Below, piece after piece: positions 3,001 to 52,682 of a stretch of 64,000 nucleotides of DNA. The DNA lies in the IMG/VR virus record IMGVR_UViG_3300036799_000043, positions 1 to 64,000 of that record. One strand, written 5' to 3'. Below the pieces are notes generated by a model. The model ran no database searches. It was not told the DNA's origin and was given only the letters and a program-made list of their open reading frames with translations. The position numbers were made by a program, and so were the translations under genes. Source of the stretch: a virus. Within the stretch, counting starts at the first letter, position 1; each line of letters starts with the position of its first letter.

Positions 3001-5102
3001 GTCTCAATGCTGGTCGAATGCCGTTTCTGCATTGGGGCCCGTGGCAGACTACGCCGAATCATGCACCCGACTACTCACTGCGATGTGCCGCTATCGCTGC
3101 TGGTAACCACGACACGTTCCTGCATCAGTGGTTCGCAGCGTGCGCAGCGTGGGGCAGACCATTCTTCATGCGCTGGATTCACGAGATCAACGCGAACGGT
3201 GGGTGGAGTGTCGACGACTTCCCGTGGTGCGTTGGCACCGTACAGTCGACAAGCTCACCGACTTCGTGGACGAATACTCCGGCTGATCTCATCAACGCAC
3301 ACCGCAAAGTGCGCTCGATTCAACTGCAAGAGGGCGCTATCAACTGCGCGCTCGCGACGTGCTTCAACATCATGGGTAACAGCGGCGCGACGAGCGTCTA
3401 CCATCTCGCCGATCTCTATCCTGGCTCTGACAATCAAGTCGACATCAACACCGTCGACGGGTACAACCAGTCGAGCCCGATCACGGGCCCAACGTTTCAT
3501 CAGATCCTACGTGGCCCAAGTGCAACACCGTCATACAGCGGTGTGCGCGACACATGGGGCGAGTTACTCGCGCTTGATCCATCAGGTACTTTGCCGTGTG
3601 GTATCGCAGAGACAAACTGCAATCTCTCTGTCGACGACGCGGCACATCACACCGCGCGCGCTACCTGGTATACGAACATGTTTGCGGACTTTGTCGACCC
3701 GGTGAAGTTCCCGCGCGCTGCATTACTCGCGCCGTTCTATTGGGGCGCTGGTTACGATGCGGTCAACCAGATGGCGCCAGACTACGATGGAACGCGCACG
3801 ACAAACTCTGACTATCTCGCGTTCATACGCGGCCTTGGCAGCGCGAAGTACATCAGTTACCCGCACTTCACTCCGCTACCGAATCGAGCGCGGCCGACGA
3901 GCTACGCTGCGAGCACACAAAATACGCCGTTCGAGAACGCAGTGCTCAGTCAGGAAGTCGCCGTCGGAGTATGGAACTTTGATGTTTCTTCTGGTTTGTT
4001 CACTGACGCAACTGGCTTAGGTCGAGCGCTGACAAATACTGGTATGTTGTATCAGCAGTCGCCTGTGGTGCCATCTGAGACGCGTCTGTCTGCTGGCTTC
4101 ACCGGCACGAGCTTCGCTGATGGCGGTGACCTAGACGACTGGAGCTACGTTACAACCGGTCAACTGTGCGTTGTCGCGACCGTGACGTTCCAGTCAGTCC
4201 CAATAGGCTTATGCACGATTGTTGGTAAAGCTGGTAATAGCGCGTTCGAGTGGGAACTGCGCGCGAATGGCTCAGCTATCGAGTTTCTCGCATGGGAGCC
4301 ACTTGGTGGTAATTACGCGAGCGCGTCAGGGCCAATTGGAATCATAGCCGGCGCGCCGATGCTGATCGTTGCGATGATCGACATGGCTGCTACACCGCGC
4401 ATGAAGCTTTACATGGGCGACCCATCAGTCAATGGCTTCCACACATCGACTGACTACACTGGCTCTGTACCAACGAACACAACATCACCATTACGCTTTG
4501 GGCAACGAGCGCTTGGCGATCACGTCATGATTGCTGGTACGCGTATCGGTGTATGCGCGATTTACAAGAACACGATTCCACAAGGTGCTGTCCAAGAATT
4601 GTGGAACACGTTTTCAGCAGGCGCGCAAAAACCCGCTGTTGATACTGGCCGTCTAACAAGCGTCGAGTCGTACAGCATTCTACCAAACTTACTCGTGAGC
4701 CAGTCGGCAGCAATCAACTCTGCTGAGACTGCTGCTGTACCTGGCACGTTCTTCCTGTCAGACACCGACTTGATTGTCAGCACTGGCTTTGATTCGCTGC
4801 AGCAGTCGCAACTACTCGTCACGACTGATACTGGCCACTTTGTTGACACTCAGGGTGCGACACTGCTGCAGCTTGCAGCACCAGTTATCACGAGTGTTGT
4901 TGCGTCTCGCATCTCTGACACGAGCGTCCTGGTGACGTGGAATACTGATAAGCCAGCAACATCTCAGGTCGAGTACGGGCGCACGATTGTGTACGGCACG
5001 CTGACGCCAATAGATCCAACGCTCGTCACCGCACACAGCGTCACGTTGACGAATCTGCAGGAGAACACAACCTACCACTTCCGTGTCAGGAGTGATGGGT
5101 GA
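12..5102 (+). CDS. Giant tail fibre with GH26-like, LamG-like and Fn3-like modules
   Basis: This 1696-residue multidomain protein is probably a receptor-binding or surface-degrading tail fibre. Two glycoside hydrolase family 26-like modules lie at about residues 1-360 and 940-1330. The second keeps a likely acid/base Glu in a HEINANGGW motif (E1058) and a candidate nucleophile in AETN (E1200). The first keeps CEMNGNW (E112) but has Ser near 247 in the second position. LamG/concanavalin-like modules with an FEWALR-type strand lie near 395-620, 640-890 and 1360-1560. A D-x-x-L-x-S-x-E repeat links modules, and the C-terminal 85 residues look like a fibronectin type III domain. No in-frame stop precedes position 12, so the true start may lie outside the window. 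The fold assignments come from motif recognition, not a search. Confidence 0.8.
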   Translation: MSRPRSIYFGHMKPGMTGSWARVLADSQKTPSLGSLTSYWPATFASIQTALNFFITNGAIPILDWNSCSFGAPGAGFANKAITAGQQDTFLNPWFAACAAWNKPIFIVFDCEMNGNWMGYSDYVTTWGDTTFGMNSAGSFSAMFQHVVNLSRANNCTNISWVFAPNTQSPDGSGFSTSETTQPLAQFWPAGYWDVLSWDGFDNAGSPSRVSHTMTFDQLNRGFAGTLGNTLAHLLALDPNQGILINSFGTDTRLGSDLNPNAATAPIIDGVHRGNWWLDCLLTQLPSSVYNRVIGLLVYDSDNAAATTPFPLPPGFSTTDNDCCVGSPDPAAVSGTYGGLPYTVQNPAAAIAGWRQGISSSLYLQGGKFIMPANGTKPSAYYAVRDTDLLRTSILAMSGLTGFWELNDASGTVLVDSSGNTRNGTVPVGSTITLNQPKVAPQGPASIRFPGDVTNGYASVADNSGFSVTTTSKLTIGCVFQVNTLPTAGTFGTLMSKSASSQLEWALRVTPTGIECVMWALTGATYASVSSSSVVVGQPYIVMVTMDITQAGSFATPSAPKMTMYLYGVGTPHTSSDVSPPPAIADGTGPLNFGRRGDVTSPFNGWMQYAFITNTAQSAATWAELLRAFDPGTVLPYQLNTYIQDILATPGLIDLFVLDDATGTQRIQNNVSTERYLTPHGSIALQQTGIIPATPGVQSLATGGTVADYLDAADVVDWSVATTGQFSITVGFYPTAFPAAGAYGTIVGKVGAGVFEWALRLANSTGMIEFIGWGPTGATSWSAQVGPALLNQWNFVTAIFNNAHAGSGATPSDPKAHVSHNARLTAFGTDYVDVSVNTAAPLNVGRRGDGSQPFTGRISTLALYNVELSRATHDTLYSASLAGAPIIGTDTETLVAVETPTVAAITAASGSAKSAIWYVQNIAYETGFPALQTGYYGQTIDGTNDVISLWESRMAAAMGAQWMQNAKRVPMLAWGQQWMQNNAYRTFAQIQVGLDNCLNAGRMPFLHWGPWQTTPNHAPDYSLRCAAIAAGNHDTFLHQWFAACAAWGRPFFMRWIHEINANGGWSVDDFPWCVGTVQSTSSPTSWTNTPADLINAHRKVRSIQLQEGAINCALATCFNIMGNSGATSVYHLADLYPGSDNQVDINTVDGYNQSSPITGPTFHQILRGPSATPSYSGVRDTWGELLALDPSGTLPCGIAETNCNLSVDDAAHHTARATWYTNMFADFVDPVKFPRAALLAPFYWGAGYDAVNQMAPDYDGTRTTNSDYLAFIRGLGSAKYISYPHFTPLPNRARPTSYAASTQNTPFENAVLSQEVAVGVWNFDVSSGLFTDATGLGRALTNTGMLYQQSPVVPSETRLSAGFTGTSFADGGDLDDWSYVTTGQLCVVATVTFQSVPIGLCTIVGKAGNSAFEWELRANGSAIEFLAWEPLGGNYASASGPIGIIAGAPMLIVAMIDMAATPRMKLYMGDPSVNGFHTSTDYTGSVPTNTTSPLRFGQRALGDHVMIAGTRIGVCAIYKNTIPQGAVQELWNTFSAGAQKPAVDTGRLTSVESYSILPNLLVSQSAAINSAETAAVPGTFFLSDTDLIVSTGFDSLQQSQLLVTTDTGHFVDTQGATLLQLAAPVITSVVASRISDTSVLVTWNTDKPATSQVEYGRTIVYGTLTPIDPTLVTAHSVTLTNLQENTTYHFRVRSDG

Positions 5103-5731
5103 GTCTCGCTTTATCGACAGATCAAACCTTCGTAACAACCGGCGTCGTCGATGTCGAGCAGTTTTCGAGTGCTGTCAATGACCGCATCCAGAAACGTTAC
5201 TTGCCGTGGTACTATGCGCCGGGCGCTCGCACGCGTCGACTGTCGCAGGTCGTCGCGCTAGAGATTCAGTCGCTTCGGGATGCGGTGCTCGACGTGACGA
5301 ATCAGACGTACGCTCGCCAGTCCACGTGGACGATGCCTCAGCAAGAGTCCGACTATGGCCTGTCAATAGAGTCTGACACACCAATCGAACAGCGTCAGGA
5401 CCGACTCGTATCTGCAATGCGACAGCTTGGCACCGCAGACCTACAGCGCATCAAGGCGATCTGCGAGAGCTACGTATTCGGCACTGTCGATGTTATCCCA
5501 GACTTTGCCAACTACACGATCATCGTCCAATTCAAAAGCACTCAGGGCATTCCTGCTAACTTGGCAGACTTGCAAGCACAAGTGCGCTCGCGCATACCCC
5601 CGCCTATCGACATACTGTATTGGACGAAGTTCACGCGCTATGGCGAGATCAAAGCGGCGTCTCGAACCTACGGCGACCTCAAGTCATTGGGCTTGACGTA
5701 TGGTGCTATCAAAACGTGGAGGCCATCCTAA
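5099..5731 (+). CDS. DUF2313/YmfQ-like tail protein
   Basis: This 210-residue protein starts at GTG and overlaps the fibre stop as GTGA, so the two are probably translationally coupled. It resembles YmfQ/DUF2313 tail proteins (Mu gp48 type): an N-terminal LP-W segment, a helical LEIQSLRDAV region, an RR-type SPIEQRQDRL segment and a C-terminal domain ending in PPIDILYWTKFTRYG. The last 40 residues carry three copies of a Y/F-G-x-I/L-K motif. Members of this family usually lie next to baseplate J in contractile or long-tailed phages, so a baseplate-proximal position is inferred. Confidence 0.6.
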   Translation: MSLALSTDQTFVTTGVVDVEQFSSAVNDRIQKRYLPWYYAPGARTRRLSQVVALEIQSLRDAVLDVTNQTYARQSTWTMPQQESDYGLSIESDTPIEQRQDRLVSAMRQLGTADLQRIKAICESYVFGTVDVIPDFANYTIIVQFKSTQGIPANLADLQAQVRSRIPPPIDILYWTKFTRYGEIKAASRTYGDLKSLGLTYGAIKTWRPS

Positions 5732-6514
5732 ATGGGAACACGTACGACATACGTAAATCTGTACAAGCCAGCCGACAATGAGGTGTTCGATCAGCAGCTA
5801 AACGACAACGCTGATTACGATCTCATCGACGCGCAAGTACTGCTCGAACACAATCTCATTGTCGGTCACTCGAATGCAGCATCACCGCACTCAGGGCATG
5901 CAGTGCTCATTGGCACGAACATGTTCCAGGGTCAAGAGCAGATTGTGTCGAGTCCAGACGCGCTCGCGCTGCTCGTCGATACGGGCATACTCGTCGCACC
6001 CGGCACACTGACAGGCTCGCGCGCGACGCTGCGAGCGCACAGCTACGACACACAGGACCATCGACGCGACTTTATCTGGCGAGCGCGCGCGACATCAAAC
6101 GCAGGCAACGGCATCCTTGAACTGCTCACGTCACTCGACGGTGCTGCGCCAACTGTATTGTGGTCTGTCAGCCAGTCAGGCGCGCTTGGCGCAGCACCTC
6201 CAGCGGAGCTTGTCTTCGCGAACTCTGTGCTCGTCACGGGTACGAGCGTCGACCTGACGACGCTACCCAACGTCATGTACGTGTTTCCCACTGCAAACGG
6301 ACTGACAATCACACTGCCTGACGCGCGCGTTACGAATAGGCCGATAACTGTCTACGGTCCACCAATCGCTGGTCAGTCAACGACTGTTGCTGCAGTCTTC
6401 GGCAGCGTGTCAGGTGGCTCAGCGAACCTGACGACTGGCGCGATACAGAACGGCACAGTCGTTAGCGGTGACTCGTTCCTGTACAAGTCGAATACTTCAA
6501 ACTGGCTATCCTGA
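5732..6514 (+). CDS. Putative short tail fibre protein
   Basis: This 260-residue protein starts at ATG directly after the previous stop. The N-terminus has the NLYKPADNE and D-x-LID pattern common at the attachment end of phage fibres. The middle is Ala/Ser/Thr rich, and the C-terminus looks beta-structured, with Gly, Ser and Asn-rich strands ending in SNTSNWLS, as fibre tips often do. No enzymatic motif is visible. The assignment rests on the N-terminal pattern and its position among tail genes. Confidence 0.5.
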   Translation: MGTRTTYVNLYKPADNEVFDQQLNDNADYDLIDAQVLLEHNLIVGHSNAASPHSGHAVLIGTNMFQGQEQIVSSPDALALLVDTGILVAPGTLTGSRATLRAHSYDTQDHRRDFIWRARATSNAGNGILELLTSLDGAAPTVLWSVSQSGALGAAPPAELVFANSVLVTGTSVDLTTLPNVMYVFPTANGLTITLPDARVTNRPITVYGPPIAGQSTTVAAVFGSVSGGSANLTTGAIQNGTVVSGDSFLYKSNTSNWLS

Positions 6515-34581: not shown

Positions 34582-34774
34582 GACGTGCCCGCGATGCGGA
34601 GTCAAGCATCGCGGGCTATTCTTCAAGAAGCTACAGCAAGCGTCGTCACCAGTTGCTGGACCGATTCAACCGTATACACACTGGTCGACGTGCCCGAAGA
34701 CACACGAGCCGATGTTGTATGCGGTGCTACTTGAGGCACTTCCGCGTGAGCCAAGATTCAGTCAGGTCACCTAG
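34565..34774 (+). CDS. 69-residue zinc-finger protein
   Basis: ETCPRCGVKHRG and WSTCP provide one zinc site. It overlaps the previous gene by 17 nt and faces a minus-strand gene whose end overlaps its stop. The function is unknown. Confidence 0.5.
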   Translation: MVVDVETCPRCGVKHRGLFFKKLQQASSPVAGPIQPYTHWSTCPKTHEPMLYAVLLEALPREPRFSQVT

Positions 34775-35349
34775 CACCCTGAGACAGTCCACTGCGCGCG
34801 TCTGCCGAGCGCTAAGTCGTGCGCAGCGACAGACTCAGCCTGCCACGGTACCCACGGTGACCAGTCGAAGTGACCCATCTCAGCAGCGTGCGCGTAGAAC
34901 GTGCCCGGCAGGTACTGCATCACACCTGACGCGCCGCTACCGCTTCTGTTCGCGACGTTCGCGCCGCCGCTCTCTTTCATCTCAATGCAGTACACCCGGG
35001 AATTGACGACAGGTGCGACGAAGGTGACAGGCGGCTCTGCGTTCTCACCCTGCCACTCGACGATGCGATTGCCGACGAGCGCAGCGTGAGCGTAGCCGTC
35101 TGTGAATGCGATAGTGCCAGTGTCACTGTGCCAATACACTGCGCCTGTTGAAGTCAACTGCATCGTGCCGATGTCAGTGCCGAACTCTCTCGTTAGCGGT
35201 GTACCAACGCGCTCAGGCAGAACGTCTGCGAGCTTTGCAAAGCCGTCGGTGTCGAACGATTCATCAGCGAAGACGCTGACAGAGCTAATGGCAAACAGCG
35301 CGAACGCTGCGAGAAGGGCGAGCCAATATCGCCAGTTTAGAGTAAGCAC
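34771..35349 (-). CDS. Secreted lytic transglycosylase-like (SLT/Rpf-type) protein
   Basis: This 192-residue protein has a signal peptide (about residues 1-29, ending SVSVFA). The C-terminal domain has YCIEMKESGGANVANRSGSGASGVMQYLPGTF. This matches the E-SGG-x(n)-N-x-SGA-G-x-Q core of SLT/Rpf-like peptidoglycan lytic enzymes, with E the likely acid. It is alone on the minus strand inside the rightward block. It may act at the host wall on entry, exit or exclusion. Confidence 0.7.
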   Translation of the reverse strand: MLTLNWRYWLALLAAFALFAISSVSVFADESFDTDGFAKLADVLPERVGTPLTREFGTDIGTMQLTSTGAVYWHSDTGTIAFTDGYAHAALVGNRIVEWQGENAEPPVTFVAPVVNSRVYCIEMKESGGANVANRSGSGASGVMQYLPGTFYAHAAEMGHFDWSPWVPWQAESVAAHDLALGRRAQWTVSGC

Positions 35350-37641: not shown

Positions 37642-40600
37642 ATGGCCTTTGCGCCAGTCGCGTTCGATCTCGCTGCGTTCGGTGGCGGTCCGCTTGCTGC
37701 GCTGATACAAGACGACACACCTGTTAGCTGGTGGCGACTGGGTGAAGCATCGGGCACTGCGGCCTCAGACAGTGGCTCAGCAGGCGCACCTGGTACGTAT
37801 ACCGGTAGCATCGCGCTCGGGCAGATACCTCTAGAAAACGCAGATGCAACCACATCTGCCGGTTTTGACGGCTCGACTTCGTACGTCACTGTTCCGGACA
37901 ACAACGCTCACTCAATCGGTACAACTGGTGCGCTGACTGTCGTAGCTGTTGTCATTCTGCCAGCGAAGCCATCAGCACTGCTCAGCATCGTCGCGAAAGC
38001 GACTGGCTCGGTGTTTGAGTGGGCATTGCGCGTCTCCGCTAACGGCGGTGTCGAAGCTGACGTATGGACGACGGGCGGTACAACCCTTGCGTCGTCAGGC
38101 GGTGCGAGCATCAGTACGTCGGTCTGGAACTCAGATTACCAGGGGCGCGCGGTACTGCTCGCGTTCACGTTCGATAACTCTGTGGCTGGCGTAAACCCGC
38201 TGCGTTCATACATCAACAAAACGTCATTTGGAAGCGCAGCGAAGACGCTTTCTATAGGCAACACGACTGCGCCAGTCACGATTGGTCGGCGCGGTGACAA
38301 CACTGGAATAGTGCCGAACGGCACGCTTATCCAAGATGTTGCCATATTCGATCACGTGCTCAGCCCGACTCGACTTGCTCAGTACGTCGACGCGCTGCTT
38401 GGTGAGCCGAGCACGTCCGACACGTCTGCGCTGGCTGCGTCAGAGAGTGCTACTGCACCCGATGCAACGTTTGTCCCGACCGACTCGACAGCTTTGGTAT
38501 CGTCTGAGCTTGCAACGCAAGGTGCTGTCTACGCGAGCTACAGCGGCGACAGCGATACGTTCGATACACCGACGAACTGGAGCATAGGGCCGCAGTCTAG
38601 CGTAACTGGTAGTCAAGGGCTACTAACACCGCTCAACACTGGCGCAAACAGTACGTACCTGTCGGAAGTCGCACTGCACGACCTGACCGGTTCGTTTGCG
38701 TCTGTGCAGATTGTGCAACCGCTCAATCAGGTTTCTGGCGCGCAATCGCAGTTCGAGTTACGTTCGCACGGTCTTGGCACGTACTCAACTCTGCTCGTGC
38801 TTGAGAATGGCATATTGTACTTTGAGCGCAATCTGGCAGGAACGTATACGCAAGTAGCGTCTGTTGCCTGGGATGCACCGAACATGACGTTTTGGCGCAT
38901 CAGAGAGGCAGACGGCTATCTGTACGGTGATACATCGCCAGATGGCTCGACGTGGTCGAATGTCGGTTCGTTCCGTTACTTGGGCACACCGATCACCGTA
39001 ACCGACATGCAGGTGAACATCGTCGGCAGTACTTGGAAGTTGGTCGCGTCACCTGGCACGTTGATCGTCGACAACCTGAATCTGTTTATCACCTCGATCA
39101 CACCTGGTGATTCATCAACGATCTTGTCGACGGGCACTGACTCGCTCGCAGCGACGACGAGTGCAACTGACAGCGAGTCGCTCACTAGCGGTGAAACCGA
39201 CGCACTCGCGACGACGAGCAGCGCATCCGATACAAGCGCTATTGCCAGTACTGGTTTCGATTCATGGCCAGCATTCTTACCAACGACCGACAGTACATCT
39301 GTCGGCAGTTCTGAGGCGTCGACACTCGGCAGCACAATACCGTCCACTGACAGTAGCGCGCTGACAGCGAGCGAGACTGCTACTGCGAATGCCGGAGGGC
39401 CTGCTGCGCAGAGCGATACTGCGGCGTTCGCGAGTGTCGAGACTGCCGCTGCTGGACTGACGCAGAGCACAGGCGTCGCGAGCTTTAGCGAAGAATTCAA
39501 TAACAACGCCACTGGTACGTGGGGACTGTCGACCGGTGCAGTCATTAGTGGCGGTGTACTCACGACGACGATCCAGAGTACGACTGCTGCAGACTTTCAA
39601 GCCGCACAGACCACAGTCCTCTGGGATGCGACTGACGCGATTGTCAGCGCTCAAGTCGTGCAGTGGCCGAATGCACTCTCTGGTAGTCAAGCGATCTATG
39701 CGTTACGCGTCGCTGGACTCGGAAGTGACACTGTTGACTTTACGTGGGACAACGGCAATCTCACGCCAGAGTACTCAGTTGGTGGTATATACACACACGG
39801 GCCGACAATCACCGCACCTAGTGCGCCAGTGTTGTTGCGCTTCCGAACATCGCATGGTTGGCTGTATTGGGAATACTCATTTGATGCAGTGTCCTGGACT
39901 GCATTGTGGTCGTGGAACTACACGATTGATCTCGCGAGCGTACAGGTTCTGTTTGAGAGCCAGACTTGGAAGGCAGTTACCGGTGCTGGCTCTGCGATCT
40001 GGGACAACCTAAATGTCACCACGTTGCTCTCTAACGACAGCAGCGCCCTGTCGTCGAGTGAAACATCGCTAATTGGCGAATTACTCGTTGCAACTGACAC
40101 TGGTGCACTTGCAAGCAGCGAGGTCGCACTCATCAGCGCTGTCGCAGTCACCGCAGTTGACAGCGATCTATTGCTCAGTCTCGAAAGCTTATTGCTGTCG
40201 AGCACGCGCAGCACGAGCGATAGCAGCGCGTTTGGCAGTACTAACGTTGCCAGTCTGACTGTCAGCACGGTCAGCGTAGATAGTGACGCACTCGCGAGCG
40301 GCGAGGTGCTGAGCGCCCAGCAGAGCACACTGGCATCTGACGCAGAGACGTTGATCGCGAGTGAAGCGACAGTAATCGCTGCGACATTGAGCGCAAGCGA
40401 CAGCGAAGCACTCGTATCTGCCGAGCCAGTGTCAATGACCGCGTTTCGCAGCACGACCGACGCGAGCACGCCAGTCGGCACTGAGACGCCGACGAGCGCG
40501 CAGCAGATCGCACTGAGCGAGTCAACAGGCGTCGCGTCGAGCGACACTGCGCAAGCGACTGCGCTACCCACGCTCAGCGATAGCACGCCGCTGCTGAGTA

Positions 40601-41784
40601 CAGACGCGTCGAGTCTGACAGCGCAGCCTGTTGCGAACGATAGCGAGTCACTCGTGACAGGTGAAGCTGCGCAATATTCTGCGCAGTCGACAGCTAGCGA
40701 TGTCGCGCCACTTACAAGCGCCGAGCAGATCGCAGGCGTATTCCCTGTCCTTGCCAGTGACGCATCGAGTGTCAGCGCGAGCGAGTCTGACCTACTGTCT
40801 GCGGTGATCCCATTGGCTGATAGTGAGTCGCTCGCAAGTAGTGACGTGTTGAGTTACCTGCCAATGCTTGCGTCGAGCGACAGCGGCAGCATTGCGGCAA
40901 GCGAGATTGGTTTTGGTGGATCACCAATCGTCGCGAGTGAGACTGCAGCTATCGCGTCGAGTGAGTCGCATAGCTCGACAGCGAGCTACGCAAGCGGTGA
41001 CGGTGTGCTCGTACACAGCGCAGAGCTTGCAGCACCGCTAGCAACGTCTGCAGCGAGCGAGACGACTGCTACTACGTCGAGCGAGCAATCGACGCTGACG
41101 CCCTTTGTGAGCGTCTCTGATGCGACGCTGACGCTCACGTCTGAGGCAGCGCAGACTACCGAGTTTGCGTTTCCAGTGCAAACGGGTGACGCATCGCCAA
41201 TTACTGCTGACGAACATCTCTCACCGCTGATCGCATTCGCTGCGAATGAGACTGCAGCACTGCTGTCGAGCGAGCTTATCTCCGCACTCGCGCGCGGCAC
41301 ACTGAGCGACGCGAGCGACCTGAGTGCAAGTGAATTTGGCGATGCAATACGCCTAACAGCGTTCTTCGCAAACGACATCGCGCCGTTGCTATCTGATGAG
41401 TCGGGCACATATGCGGTGAGTGTCGGGCGTATCGAAACTGTGCAGATCGTAGCCGCTGAAACGCTGCTCATTTTCGGTGCATTCGCGATCTCTGACGATG
41501 CGACAGTCGCGAGCATCGAACTTGCCGTTATACCGGCGCTGCTGTTTATTGTTGACGCGTCACTGATACAGACAAGCGAGCTAGCGTCGACGTTGCAGTT
41601 TGCCGGCAAGGGCTATCACGACTTCTCGCCAGGTCGTACACGCGCAGATGTCGTCGATAATGGCAGTGTGACAACCAGTACAGCGCGACGCCCGACACGC
41701 GCAGAAATTCTTGTGCCAGGTAGACGCACTGCTAGCACCACCGCGCGCTCGACAGCAGCGACGACGAGCTTGGTCAGGAGATAG
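37642..41784 (+). CDS. Giant repeat fibre protein with LamG-like domains
   Basis: This 1380-residue protein has a LamG-like domain at about 20-250 with the FEWALR strand seen in the fibre at 12-5102. Two related beta-sandwich domains follow at about 300-490 and 620-800 (both end in an xxDNLNxx strand). From about 800 to 1330 there are some two dozen imperfect repeats of about 22 residues, built on D-S/A-x-x-L-x-S-x-E/S, rich in Ser, Ala and Thr. The last 55 residues are basic. It looks like a long stalk displaying carbohydrate-binding caps. Its host-range role is inferred. Confidence 0.7.
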   Translation: MAFAPVAFDLAAFGGGPLAALIQDDTPVSWWRLGEASGTAASDSGSAGAPGTYTGSIALGQIPLENADATTSAGFDGSTSYVTVPDNNAHSIGTTGALTVVAVVILPAKPSALLSIVAKATGSVFEWALRVSANGGVEADVWTTGGTTLASSGGASISTSVWNSDYQGRAVLLAFTFDNSVAGVNPLRSYINKTSFGSAAKTLSIGNTTAPVTIGRRGDNTGIVPNGTLIQDVAIFDHVLSPTRLAQYVDALLGEPSTSDTSALAASESATAPDATFVPTDSTALVSSELATQGAVYASYSGDSDTFDTPTNWSIGPQSSVTGSQGLLTPLNTGANSTYLSEVALHDLTGSFASVQIVQPLNQVSGAQSQFELRSHGLGTYSTLLVLENGILYFERNLAGTYTQVASVAWDAPNMTFWRIREADGYLYGDTSPDGSTWSNVGSFRYLGTPITVTDMQVNIVGSTWKLVASPGTLIVDNLNLFITSITPGDSSTILSTGTDSLAATTSATDSESLTSGETDALATTSSASDTSAIASTGFDSWPAFLPTTDSTSVGSSEASTLGSTIPSTDSSALTASETATANAGGPAAQSDTAAFASVETAAAGLTQSTGVASFSEEFNNNATGTWGLSTGAVISGGVLTTTIQSTTAADFQAAQTTVLWDATDAIVSAQVVQWPNALSGSQAIYALRVAGLGSDTVDFTWDNGNLTPEYSVGGIYTHGPTITAPSAPVLLRFRTSHGWLYWEYSFDAVSWTALWSWNYTIDLASVQVLFESQTWKAVTGAGSAIWDNLNVTTLLSNDSSALSSSETSLIGELLVATDTGALASSEVALISAVAVTAVDSDLLLSLESLLLSSTRSTSDSSAFGSTNVASLTVSTVSVDSDALASGEVLSAQQSTLASDAETLIASEATVIAATLSASDSEALVSAEPVSMTAFRSTTDASTPVGTETPTSAQQIALSESTGVASSDTAQATALPTLSDSTPLLSTDASSLTAQPVANDSESLVTGEAAQYSAQSTASDVAPLTSAEQIAGVFPVLASDASSVSASESDLLSAVIPLADSESLASSDVLSYLPMLASSDSGSIAASEIGFGGSPIVASETAAIASSESHSSTASYASGDGVLVHSAELAAPLATSAASETTATTSSEQSTLTPFVSVSDATLTLTSEAAQTTEFAFPVQTGDASPITADEHLSPLIAFAANETAALLSSELISALARGTLSDASDLSASEFGDAIRLTAFFANDIAPLLSDESGTYAVSVGRIETVQIVAAETLLIFGAFAISDDATVASIELAVIPALLFIVDASLIQTSELASTLQFAGKGYHDFSPGRTRADVVDNGSVTTSTARRPTRAEILVPGRRTASTTARSTAATTSLVRR

Positions 41785-42927: not shown

Positions 42928-43890
42928 ATGAGTAAGAAGCACGCCAGCGGTTACCCAGCCACGCGCGAGCGTGTGTCCGCACAAGTCAAGTCGGTCGTCA
43001 GACTGCTTGACTTGGGCGTGGACGAAGCAGAGGCAGTACAGATCGTCAAAGACTATGGCTGCGAACGTGTGCATGAGCTTCTCGAACTGTCAGACTCACA
43101 ACTGTATGCCCCTGAGGGCGAAGGCGAGTCGGCACGCGCAAGCGCCGAATGTGCACTGCGCGCGTACATCAAGACGCAAGTCGACGCGACGCGCGACAAG
43201 CATCCGTGGCCGTATCAGTCAGTCTGCGATCTACTGCAGAAACACGGCGAAGTCTTCCGAGTCGAGTCGTACGCGAAGCAACCATATTCGCTCGGCAAGA
43301 TTGGCCGCTGCTACGCGAACGCGATTGATGCGGTGCTGCGCCGACCGACGCATCTGACGTACGTCGAAGGCTACGCACTGTCGCGATTGGGAGTGCCATT
43401 AGAGCACGCGTGGGTCGTCGACGACGCTGGCAAAGCGTGGGACGTTACATGGAAATGGTCAGAGCGCAGCGAGCATCACCGAGCAGACGAGAGTGCGCTC
43501 ATCGGCGTTCGTGTGCCTATCAACGCGCTGCAAGCTCACTGGAGGACGTGTGCTGGCGCGGCGTTTCTCGAAGATAGGCGGCATCACTTTCCAGCGCTGC
43601 GGGTGCCGTATTCCGCCTGGTCAGACGTGCTCGTTGACGAGCTTGCGCAGATACGCGAGAAACACTGTCTGCCAATCGTTGCGTCAGGAAAGGCAGTCGA
43701 AGACGAAATGTCCGGGATGATAAACACACTCGTTCCGGGTGCTGTCGTGTGTACGCGGTGCAACACTCAGATTCTCAAGGATGAGAAGCGTATGTGGATA
43801 ACAGACGTGACAGACGGTACGCAGTCGAGAGTATGCGAGCCGTGTGGTTTGACGGTTGCGGCGCGCTACAACGTGCCGCTAGTCGAATGA
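42928..43890 (+). CDS. 320-residue phage protein with YVEGYA...HAW core and zinc end
   Basis: The start is one base after the SSB stop. The helical N-terminus (RVSAQVKSVVRLLDLGVDEAEAVQIV) resembles a UBA-like bundle. The centre GRCYANAIDAVLRR, TYVEGYALSRLGVPLEHAWVVDDAGKAWDVTW is a motif string known from phage proteins of unknown function. The C-terminus has VCTRCNTQI and CEPCG. The tight linkage to SSB suggests a replication role, but none is proven. Confidence 0.5.
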   Translation: MSKKHASGYPATRERVSAQVKSVVRLLDLGVDEAEAVQIVKDYGCERVHELLELSDSQLYAPEGEGESARASAECALRAYIKTQVDATRDKHPWPYQSVCDLLQKHGEVFRVESYAKQPYSLGKIGRCYANAIDAVLRRPTHLTYVEGYALSRLGVPLEHAWVVDDAGKAWDVTWKWSERSEHHRADESALIGVRVPINALQAHWRTCAGAAFLEDRRHHFPALRVPYSAWSDVLVDELAQIREKHCLPIVASGKAVEDEMSGMINTLVPGAVVCTRCNTQILKDEKRMWITDVTDGTQSRVCEPCGLTVAARYNVPLVE

Positions 43891-44543
43891 CGTTTGGTCA
43901 GAGCGCTGGTGTGGCGGTGAGCATAGCTGTTATCACTGCGGTATATGCTGTCGCGTGCTCAGCGCCAGTCACTCATCCAGAAGCGGCACCGACGCCATAC
44001 CCCGAGACTGCAGCTATCGGTGTCGCGACGTACTTTGCTCGCGACGCCGAGCACCCGGAGCAGATCGTCGTGCAAGACGTGAACTCTGCGCAGAGCGAGA
44101 TCGTCACCGCCATGTACAGCTTCACGTACAAGCCAATCTGGGACGCGTACGTCGCAGCAGTCAAGCGTGGCGTAGCAGTGACGCTGCTGACAGATCAGAC
44201 CGAGCTACGCGGCAATGCTGCACAGACGAGCGGTGTTGCGTCGCTGTGTGCGCTCGGCGTCAAAGTGCGCGAGAACGTGCCGAAAGGTCGCGCGCTCGAA
44301 CATCTCAAGCTGAGCGTGATTGATAAGCGCATCGGCTTGGTTGGTAGCTTCAACTACACAGTCAGTGCCGTCTTGACGAATGACGAGATACTCATCAGAG
44401 TCGCGTCACCGCTCTACGCTGCAGACTGGCGCACTCACATCCTCAAGATGTATTCAGACTCGACGTATTCGCGCGACGCGTGCTCGCTCGTCTCACCGAG
44501 CACACCGACAGCGACAGACAACGCCTCAGACGGCGGCGAGTAA
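43887..44543 (+). CDS. Lipoprotein with a PLD-family (HKD) nuclease domain
   Basis: This 218-residue protein has an N-terminal signal with lipobox VYAVAC (C24), predicting an outward-facing lipid-anchored protein. The body is a single PLD-type domain: HLKLSVID (H139, K141, D146) followed by GLVGSFNYTVSA, the HxKx4D...GSxN motif of Nuc/BfiI-like phosphodiesterases, which act as dimers. A surface nuclease could destroy incoming DNA of competing phages. That role is inference. Confidence 0.75.
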   Translation: MTFGQSAGVAVSIAVITAVYAVACSAPVTHPEAAPTPYPETAAIGVATYFARDAEHPEQIVVQDVNSAQSEIVTAMYSFTYKPIWDAYVAAVKRGVAVTLLTDQTELRGNAAQTSGVASLCALGVKVRENVPKGRALEHLKLSVIDKRIGLVGSFNYTVSAVLTNDEILIRVASPLYAADWRTHILKMYSDSTYSRDACSLVSPSTPTATDNASDGGE

Positions 44544-47215: not shown

Positions 47216-47247
47216 AGCCACCAATACACGACAAGGAGACTTACCCA

Positions 47248-47916
47248 GTGACTTCTCGACTTCGTATCGCCCTTGCATTCGCGCTACTGCTCGCTGTGGT
47301 GTTCCCAGCGGCGTCTGCGTTCGCGTGGACGTGTCAGCCGGGCGTAAAGGACACGCCCGCTAACGAGCAGGCAGGACTCTGCGTTTTGCATCCAACACCG
47401 ACCCAAATCCCGACGACTGCACCTACTCCGCAGCCGACAGTGCAAACACCTGCACCGACCCCGCCGATTGTCGTCGTACCCACGTCAGCGCCGCCCGTGA
47501 GCGCACCGCCGCAGACCAATACGAGCAGCGCGCCGAGCTTTGAGAACATCTGCGTCACGAGTGTGAGCGACAACGTGCAGCACACGGACATCGTGCGCAC
47601 GAGCGACGCCAATGCGTATCTCGCGCAGCACGCTAACGCATATCACATGCCAGACATCGGCAACTGCGGACCGACAGACGTGTACTTGCAGACTGCAAAG
47701 CCGACTGTGGCGATCACGCCCGTCCCCGTCACAGCGACGCCAGTAGCAACTGTCGAGTCGACGCCCGCGCCAACTGTGACGCCAGAAGCGACGCCGACTG
47801 CTACTGCTACGCCAGTTATGACGACGCCGACTGCGACGCCAGAAGTCGTCGAGACACCAGTACCCGCTGTGCCTGACACGGGCGACGGAACTGCCGCCGA
47901 TGAGATCGCTCCTTAG
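47248..47916 (+). CDS. Secreted Pro/Thr-rich protein with sortase-like VPDTG end
   Basis: This 222-residue protein starts at GTG, with ACACGACAAGGAG upstream. A signal peptide covers residues 1-26 (ending ASAFA). Two Pro/Thr-rich stalks flank a small Cys-containing globular part (ENICVTSVSDNVQ to HMPDIGNCGPTDVYL). The end reads PVPAVPDTG at 208-212, like an LPxTG signal, followed by only ten mostly acidic residues with no membrane anchor. The sortase gene overlaps its 3-prime end, so it is the obvious candidate substrate or acceptor. Confidence 0.65.
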   Translation: MTSRLRIALAFALLLAVVFPAASAFAWTCQPGVKDTPANEQAGLCVLHPTPTQIPTTAPTPQPTVQTPAPTPPIVVVPTSAPPVSAPPQTNTSSAPSFENICVTSVSDNVQHTDIVRTSDANAYLAQHANAYHMPDIGNCGPTDVYLQTAKPTVAITPVPVTATPVATVESTPAPTVTPEATPTATATPVMTTPTATPEVVETPVPAVPDTGDGTAADEIAP

Positions 47917-48367
47917 CATCACCGCAGCGCTGCTTGTCGCGGTGCTCAGCGTGTCGAGCGCCTACGCTGACGATCTGACTGTCTCGATCCCAGACATCAG
48001 CGTCAGCGCAGCGACAGAGCGACTGGGTGTCGTCGATGACGTGCTCAGCGCTCCAGACGATCCCGACTCGCTCGGCGTATTCGAGTTTGGCGAGCAGACG
48101 ATCATTGCCGGTCACCGAGACTGGCAGTATCGTCTGCGCGCTTTCTCTCGCCTGGATCAGCTACAGCAAGGCGCAGAGGTCGACTTGAGTGACGGTCGCA
48201 GCTACAGCGTCGACTCGACTGCGGTGCTCGACGTAGACGACGCAGACGCGTGGTCGAGCTATCTGACTGGTGACGACTCGCTCGTACTCGTAACGTGTAC
48301 AGGCCCGTTCTCCTTGAGTCGACACGAGTACTTGCAGCGCTTCGTCGTGCTCGCGTTGCCAAATTAG
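47900..48367 (+). CDS. Sortase (class E/F-like) transpeptidase
   Basis: This 155-residue protein has a signal or anchor at 1-23. The sortase fold is recognisable from TVSIPDISVSA and VFEFGEQTIIAGHRDWQYRLRAF with catalytic H72. LVLVTCTG with nucleophile C133 and QRFVVLA with R147 complete the His-Cys-Arg set. It would cleave a sorting signal and attach the protein to an amine acceptor on the host surface. The start overlaps the previous gene by 17 nt, so the two are co-translated. Sortases are rare in phages. Confidence 0.8.
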   Translation: MRSLLSITAALLVAVLSVSSAYADDLTVSIPDISVSAATERLGVVDDVLSAPDDPDSLGVFEFGEQTIIAGHRDWQYRLRAFSRLDQLQQGAEVDLSDGRSYSVDSTAVLDVDDADAWSSYLTGDDSLVLVTCTGPFSLSRHEYLQRFVVLALPN

Positions 48368-52217: not shown

Positions 52218-52682
52218 ATGTTTCGCACAATCTCTCGCACTGTCACTGTTCTCGCCGCCGCTGCAGTTCTCGCCGCCTTCGCTGTTGCACCCGCGTCAGC
52301 GTATATGCCAACGCAGAGCGACTATCTGCATCTCGACAACTTCAACCTGAAAGCTCAAGACGTTGGCGGCAATAACTGGCTGACGCTGGGTGATCTCAAG
52401 ACGACTCGCTATGCCGTAGTGCGAGCCACGAACGTCAAAGGCGCTGCCGGCGTGACTATGACGCTCTGGGTGAGCGGTCGCGAGGACAAGCTTTACGTGC
52501 AGAACAACCAGACCGTGCTCGTCGACTTCGGCAAGTACATCAACACTGACACGTTCACCGAGATGCAGATGCAGTTCCCGCGCGGCACTCAGGTGACCAA
52601 CGTCACGCTCGACGTGTACGCAGTGTCGAGTGGCTTCTTCTCTGCTATCGCTGCGCCGACGCCAGCGCCGTACGTTCCCTAG
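52218..52682 (+). CDS. Secreted beta-rich protein
   Basis: This 154-residue protein has a clear signal peptide (residues 1-28, ending APASA). The mature part is beta-rich (YAVVRATNVKGAAGVTMTLWVSG, TNVTLDVYAVSSG). CACACGACTAAGGAG precedes the ATG. It is released from or displayed on the host; the function is unknown. A strong terminator follows. Confidence 0.55.
   Translation: MFRTISRTVTVLAAAAVLAAFAVAPASAYMPTQSDYLHLDNFNLKAQDVGGNNWLTLGDLKTTRYAVVRATNVKGAAGVTMTLWVSGREDKLYVQNNQTVLVDFGKYINTDTFTEMQMQFPRGTQVTNVTLDVYAVSSGFFSAIAAPTPAPYVP

What the first reader, a model, noticed from the sequence alone, without database searches (positions are those of the whole stretch)
47248..48367. Phage-encoded sortase with an overlapping candidate substrate
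A sortase with His72, Cys133 and Arg147 overlaps a secreted Pro/Thr-stalk protein ending in VPDTG and a short acidic tail without a membrane anchor. A phage that brings both an enzyme and a stalk protein could coat the infected cell, for example to block superinfection or change adhesion. The lack of a hydrophobic anchor after VPDTG is unusual and suggests a soluble substrate, or that the protein is the acceptor.
Basis: partly seen in the sequence, partly recalled or inferred. Interest (0 to 1): 0.82.

Follow-up and report, generated by a model that had tools for sequence, protein, structure and literature searches.

The report
Phage sortase with anchorless partner protein
A large tailed bacterial virus carries a small cell-wall 'stapling' enzyme (a sortase) next to a secreted stalk protein ending in a sortase-type tag, so it may decorate the surface of the infected cell; we found no other virus with such a pair, although bacteria have close equivalents.

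Summary
Window 47248-47916 encodes a secreted, Pro/Thr-rich 222-aa protein ending VPDTG-DGTAADEIAP. Window 47900-48367 (17-nt overlap, +1 frame) encodes a 155-aa sortase (Pfam PF04203, E=5e-12; His72, Cys133, Arg147). Both lie inside a 111-kb contractile-tailed phage record. Among NCBI's sortase classes it scores best against class F, but far below that model's cut-off: class F-like, shorter, without the PGxxG segment.

In 15 of 19 bacterial class F loci sampled, the gene directly upstream encodes a candidate partner; 14 of these end in a transmembrane helix and Arg/Lys tail, often after a TG motif (e.g. MPDTGFGGTA, VPRTGDGSVQ). The phage partner keeps the motif but lacks helix and basic tail. 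A bacterial precedent exists: streptococcal AbpA (LPKTS-AVK, no anchor) is wall-anchored by the SrtB encoded next door (PMC4974636).

Best reading: a phage-borne, dedicated sortase-substrate pair that works like AbpA-SrtB on a class F chassis. Activity, acceptor, host and benefit are unshown. No such sortase was found in the related phage contigs held, in 50,697 phage records, or in IMG/VR pattern scans, so it looks like an accessory gene pair. The 'acceptor' idea lacks support.

The parts
47233..47238 (+). Shine-Dalgarno-like AAGGAG before the stalk gene
   Evidence: sequence
47248..47916 (+). secreted Pro/Thr-rich stalk protein, 222 aa, GTG start; candidate sortase substrate
   Evidence: ORF and hexamer score; no Pfam match at E<=0.01, no NCBIfam or PHROG match at E<=0.1
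47248..47325 (+). predicted signal peptide of the stalk protein (MTSRLRIALAFALLLAVVFPAASAFA|W)
   Evidence: hydropathy and the -3/-1 rule, by eye
47521..47700 (+). small two-cysteine segment between two Pro/Thr linkers
   Evidence: sequence; no Pfam or NCBIfam match even at loose thresholds
47869..47883 (+). VPDTG sorting-type motif (aa 208-212)
   Evidence: sequence and shuffles; resembles class F partner motifs
47884..47913 (+). 10-residue tail DGTAADEIAP: no hydrophobic anchor, no basic residue
47900..47916 (+). 17-nt overlap of stalk stop with sortase start, +1 frame
47900..48367 (+). class F-like sortase, 155 aa
   Evidence: PF04203 5e-12; NCBIfam class F best at 44.8 bits, cut-off 166; profile without the phage protein E=2.4e-21
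47900..47968 (+). predicted signal peptide or signal anchor of the sortase (MRSLLSITAALLVAVLSVSSAYA|DD)
   Evidence: hydropathy; AXA site by eye
48113..48115 (+). catalytic His72
   Evidence: invariant column
48296..48298 (+). catalytic Cys133
   Evidence: invariant column
48338..48340 (+). Arg147, candidate catalytic Arg (Arg141 is the alternative)
   Evidence: Arg in the Bacillota class F proteins, Asn in the others

Best explanation
A phage-borne two-gene surface-display cassette. The phage makes a small exported class F-like sortase and, translated just before it from overlapping genes, its own substrate: a secreted protein with small Cys-containing segments on Pro/Thr stalks and a C-terminal VPDTG. 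The sortase cleaves between Thr and Gly and transfers the stalk protein to an amine nucleophile of the infected cell's envelope, most likely the peptidoglycan precursor. The substrate has no membrane anchor, so it must be caught while passing out or from solution, as in the streptococcal AbpA-SrtB pair, and part of it would be released. Shown by sequence: the sortase domain, catalytic residues, export signals on both, the motif, gene order and absence of an anchor. Inferred: cleavage, the acceptor, surface display. Benefit to the phage (superinfection block, shielding or adhesion of the infected cell) is speculation.
For: Pfam sortase E=5e-12. Class F is the best of NCBI's sortase classes, and a class F HMM without the phage protein gives E=2.4e-21. 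The annotated tblastn hits in plasmids are class F sortases. In 15 of 19 class F loci the gene directly upstream encodes a candidate partner, 10 of them with an xTG motif near the C-terminus and several with the same PxTGxG(G)(S/T) context. The phage motif context is rare in shuffles. The abpA-srtB locus anchors an LPKTS-AVK substrate without hydrophobic tail, with the sortase gene downstream (PMC4974636). Class F neighbours as candidate substrates were also noted in Actinoplanes (PMC13251363). A SLT plus NlpC/P60 wall-hydrolase gene in the same phage is consistent with a peptidoglycan-walled host.
Against: No homolog of the pair was found in any phage, so conservation of the VPDTG end is untested. 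The score is far below NCBI's class F cut-off. The sortase lacks the PGxxG segment and the long linker after the N-terminal helix, and its N-terminus looks cleavable, so it may not stay at the membrane. 14 of 15 bacterial partners do have an anchor. The structure prediction failed for lack of an alignment. The host is unknown.
Confidence: 0.57

Rival explanations
1. Decaying acquisition: the pair came from a bacterial class F operon and the substrate lost its membrane helix and basic tail by deletion, so the stalk protein is merely secreted and the sortase is a relic.
For: 14 of 15 bacterial partners have the helix and basic tail. The phage sortase lacks a short segment before the catalytic His strand and the usual N-terminal linker. 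No relative held here keeps the pair.
Against: Both frames are open with good coding scores, export signals and catalytic residues are intact, and the stalk has a strong Shine-Dalgarno sequence.
Confidence: 0.2
2. The sortase acts on host surface proteins or another phage protein, and VPDTG in its neighbour is not its substrate signal.
For: A PxTG match can arise by chance in a Pro/Thr-rich tail (0.4-0.7% of shuffles).
Against: VPDTG is the only such C-terminal motif on an exported protein among the called genes. Gene order matches class F loci, and the TGxG(S/T) follow-up is shared with class F partners.
Confidence: 0.13
3. A +1 ribosomal frameshift in the overlap fuses the stalk to the sortase's N-terminal helix, giving VPDTG plus a transmembrane helix at the usual spacing, so that the sortase signal doubles as the substrate anchor.
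For: The +1 frame after VPDTG reads straight into MRSLLSITAALLVAVLSV, about 6-10 residues after the motif, as in class F partners.
Against: The fused sortase would then lie on the cytoplasmic side. Overlaps of this size are ordinary in this phage. No strong slippery site was recognised by eye.
Confidence: 0.05
4. The stalk protein is the acceptor (nucleophile) rather than the substrate.
For: It lacks a membrane anchor.
Against: It carries a sorting-type motif at the C-terminus and only two Lys residues in the mature chain. Anchorless substrates exist (PMC4974636).
Confidence: 0.03

Closest known systems
Class F sortases with the gene upstream as putative substrate (Actinomycetota, Bacillota, Thermomicrobium; e.g. 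NZ_CP019641, NZ_CP033050, NZ_CP046573)
   Same: Best-matching sortase class; same gene order; C-terminal (P)xTG followed by a Gly-rich short segment
   Different: Bacterial partners have a transmembrane helix and Arg/Lys tail; bacterial sortases have a longer N-terminal region and a PGxxG segment; carried by plasmids and other bacterial replicons, not by a phage
AbpA-SrtB of oral streptococci (PMC4974636)
   Same: Secreted substrate with sorting motif and only a short tail, no hydrophobic anchor; dedicated sortase encoded directly downstream
   Different: SrtB-type sortase, LPKTS motif, AVK tail; wall anchoring and amylase binding shown experimentally; bacterial chromosome; enzyme membrane-bound
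Class E sortases (LAxTG, e.g. Streptomyces SrtE1, PMC5148588)
   Same: Sortase superfamily; actinobacterial
   Different: Motif has Ala in place of Pro; no class E model appeared among the NCBIfam matches

Membership tests
Sortase superfamily (PF04203) | Profile match above curated cut-off | tested here: met
   46.1 bits, cut-off 26.6
Sortase superfamily (PF04203) | Catalytic His, Cys (TC context) and Arg | tested here: met
   His72, Cys133 invariant; Arg147 in place in some class F proteins
Sortase superfamily (PF04203) | Eight-stranded sortase barrel | tested here: inconclusive
   single-sequence models with pLDDT about 40; no significant fold match
Class F sortase (NCBIfam NF033748) | Score above the curated class cut-off | tested here: not met
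   44.8 bits against cut-off 166, though best of the classes; hence 'class F-like', not filed as class F
Class F sortase loci | Partner gene directly upstream with C-terminal motif | tested here: met
   seen in the window; a partner gene in 15 of 19 sampled loci, 10 with xTG
Canonical cell-wall sorting signal | Motif plus hydrophobic helix plus basic tail | tested here: not met
   motif only; DGTAADEIAP then stop
AbpA-SrtB type anchorless sorting | Short-tailed substrate anchored by adjacent sortase | tested here: inconclusive
   architecture matches; anchoring cannot be tested here; sequence relatedness was not tested
Membrane-bound sortase | Uncleaved N-terminal (or C-terminal) membrane anchor | tested here: inconclusive
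   one N-terminal hydrophobic segment, but with an apparent AYA|DD cleavage site (and inspection)

The most novel reading that the evidence does not exclude
A phage encodes a fully soluble, secreted sortase and a soluble substrate, and so staples its own protein onto the wall of the infected cell (or neighbouring cells) from outside, without membrane anchoring of either partner: a viral surface-labelling system for competition or adhesion.
Probability: 0.15. Interest if true: 0.8.

Novelty: new variant of a known kind. Interest (0 to 1): 0.55.

Why it matters
Covalent surface display by sortase is known from bacteria. We found no annotated or literature case of a phage bringing its own sortase with its own substrate. 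If active, it would be a direct viral way to remodel the surface of the infected cell. It could also give a naturally minimal sortase (about 130 residues) that works on anchorless substrates, of use in protein ligation. It adds to the open question of class F function, which is stated as unknown in PMC13251363.

Tried and rejected
Homologs by pattern scan of IMG/VR with the sortase alone, paired with a Bacillota class F protein, with actinobacterial class F and Bacillota class F alignments, with the stalk segment, and with a class C fragment: no relatives. These pattern scans reach close relatives only. Genome collection scans with the sortase and the VirB4-like protein: nothing. INPHARED tblastn with the phage sortase and two class F sortases: nothing. 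A class C fragment hit 23 records; those listed are unannotated, mostly small Listeria, Enterococcus or faecal contigs, which I take for host sequence and not evidence of phage sortases. Structure prediction, whole protein and mature domain: unusable; the fold search ranked SrtA 9th and 14th without significance. The Pfam genome search missed even the window's own sortase, so its negatives were not used; the protein search did find it. Acceptor and frameshift-fusion readings were considered and ranked low.

Full report
Place. The window is the first 64 kb of a 111,054-base IMG/VR virus record. Terminase, portal, major head protein, tail sheath, tape measure and baseplate genes lie at 85-111 kb, so it is a contractile-tailed phage. 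A 65.6-kb relative (G018, major head protein 70% identical) shares the structural genes in order; the order continues from the record's end into window 5099-6514, which suggests the record is near complete and circularly permuted (inference). The phage also has ThyX, dUTPase, dCTP deaminase, SSB, a Rad52-like protein and a class II ribonucleotide reductase. No integrase was seen among the proteins scanned, so a lysogenic life is not indicated.

The two genes. The stalk gene (47248-47916) starts with GTG behind AAGGAG and encodes a signal peptide, two Pro/Thr linkers around a small two-Cys segment, and the end ...VPAVPDTGDGTAADEIAP. The sortase gene (47900-48367) overlaps it by 17 nt in the +1 frame. 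Both score as coding. Overlaps of 1-46 nt are common in this genome.

The enzyme. PF04203 matches at 5e-12. NCBI's class F model is the best of the sortase classes (44.8 bits) but far under its cut-off of 166. An HMM from six bacterial class F-type proteins, without the phage protein, finds only this protein among the phage's 113 called genes (E=2.4e-21). His72 and Cys133 are invariant; Arg147 corresponds to Arg in the Bacillota class F proteins and to Asn in the others, with Arg141 as alternative. Differences: it lacks the PGxxGN segment before the strand leading to His72 and the long linker after the N-terminal helix, and the N-terminus ends in AYA|DD, which looks like a cleavable signal peptide. 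Structure prediction without an alignment failed.

The partner. I read 19 class F-type loci from the plasmid collection. Fifteen have a candidate partner gene directly upstream on the same strand; 14 of these end in a hydrophobic helix and Arg/Lys tail, one (Tsukamurella, L097) does not. Ten carry xTG shortly before the helix, four as PxTG: MPDTGFGGTA, MPETGMGGTA, VPRTGDGSVQ, HPETGAGGTT. The phage VPDTGDGTAA fits this pattern, then the chain stops. In shuffles of the stalk, [LIVM]PxTG in the last 25 residues occurs in 0.4-0.7% and PxTGxG in under 0.1%. It is the only C-terminal motif of this kind on an exported protein of this phage. A 2026 study likewise noted that neighbours of two Actinoplanes class F sortases may be their substrates, and that class F roles are unknown (PMC13251363).

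The missing anchor. In oral streptococci AbpA ends in LPKTS plus AVK with no hydrophobic domain, is encoded directly upstream of its sortase SrtB, and is anchored to the wall by it, part of it being released to the medium (PMC4974636). This shows that an anchorless substrate with a dedicated neighbour sortase can work. The phage pair has this architecture with a different sortase class. This is likeness of working, not shared ancestry.

Distribution. None of the related phage contigs held has the sortase, but many are fragments and the relatives are remote. No class F-like sortase was found in 50,697 phage records by tblastn or in IMG/VR by pattern scans, which reach only close relatives. Literature searches found no phage-encoded sortase; the library lacks most subscription papers. 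I treat the pair as an accessory of this phage.

Mechanism and confidence. My estimates: sortase identity about 0.95; neighbour as substrate about 0.75; wall anchoring during infection about 0.57. The benefit to the phage is not shown. Host: a peptidoglycan-walled bacterium is likely (a SLT plus NlpC/P60 protein in the phage); phylum undetermined. The best reductase matches include Roseobacter and Streptomyces phages, which does not settle it.

Noticed in passing
L001:4783-12635 (record 68783-76635), - strand: A type IV secretion/conjugation-like cluster inside the phage: VirB4-like ATPase (NCBIfam CD1110 family 4.7e-12, below cut-off), a weak TrbC/VirB2-like 82-aa protein (Pfam 0.0066), a SLT plus NlpC/P60 wall hydrolase, a 443-aa multi-TM protein and a 681-aa P-loop protein. 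No tblastn match of the VirB4-like protein in plasmids, and none in related phage contigs.
   Followed up: partly
window 43794-44543: PLD-family NucT-like nuclease with an N-terminal hydrophobic segment, probably exported; also resembles DISARM DrmC in PADLOC.
   Followed up: partly
window 52218-52682 and 34771-35349 (-): Two further secreted-looking proteins: one without any family, one with weak SLT and LGFP matches. With the stalk, sortase and nuclease, the phage exports several proteins.
   Followed up: partly
window 37642-41784: 1380-aa protein with many degenerate SDSxxLxSSE-like repeats; no PHROG match.
   Followed up: no
one of 62 phage proteins of alignment A5, probably L002:1432-1776: A low-affinity iron permease family member (PF04120, 1.8e-47) in the phage; which gene it is was guessed from size and hydropathy and not confirmed singly.
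   Followed up: no
L097:1490-3333 (Tsukamurella plasmid): Class F sortase whose overlapping upstream partner also lacks a C-terminal membrane helix: a possible bacterial parallel to the phage pair.
   Followed up: no
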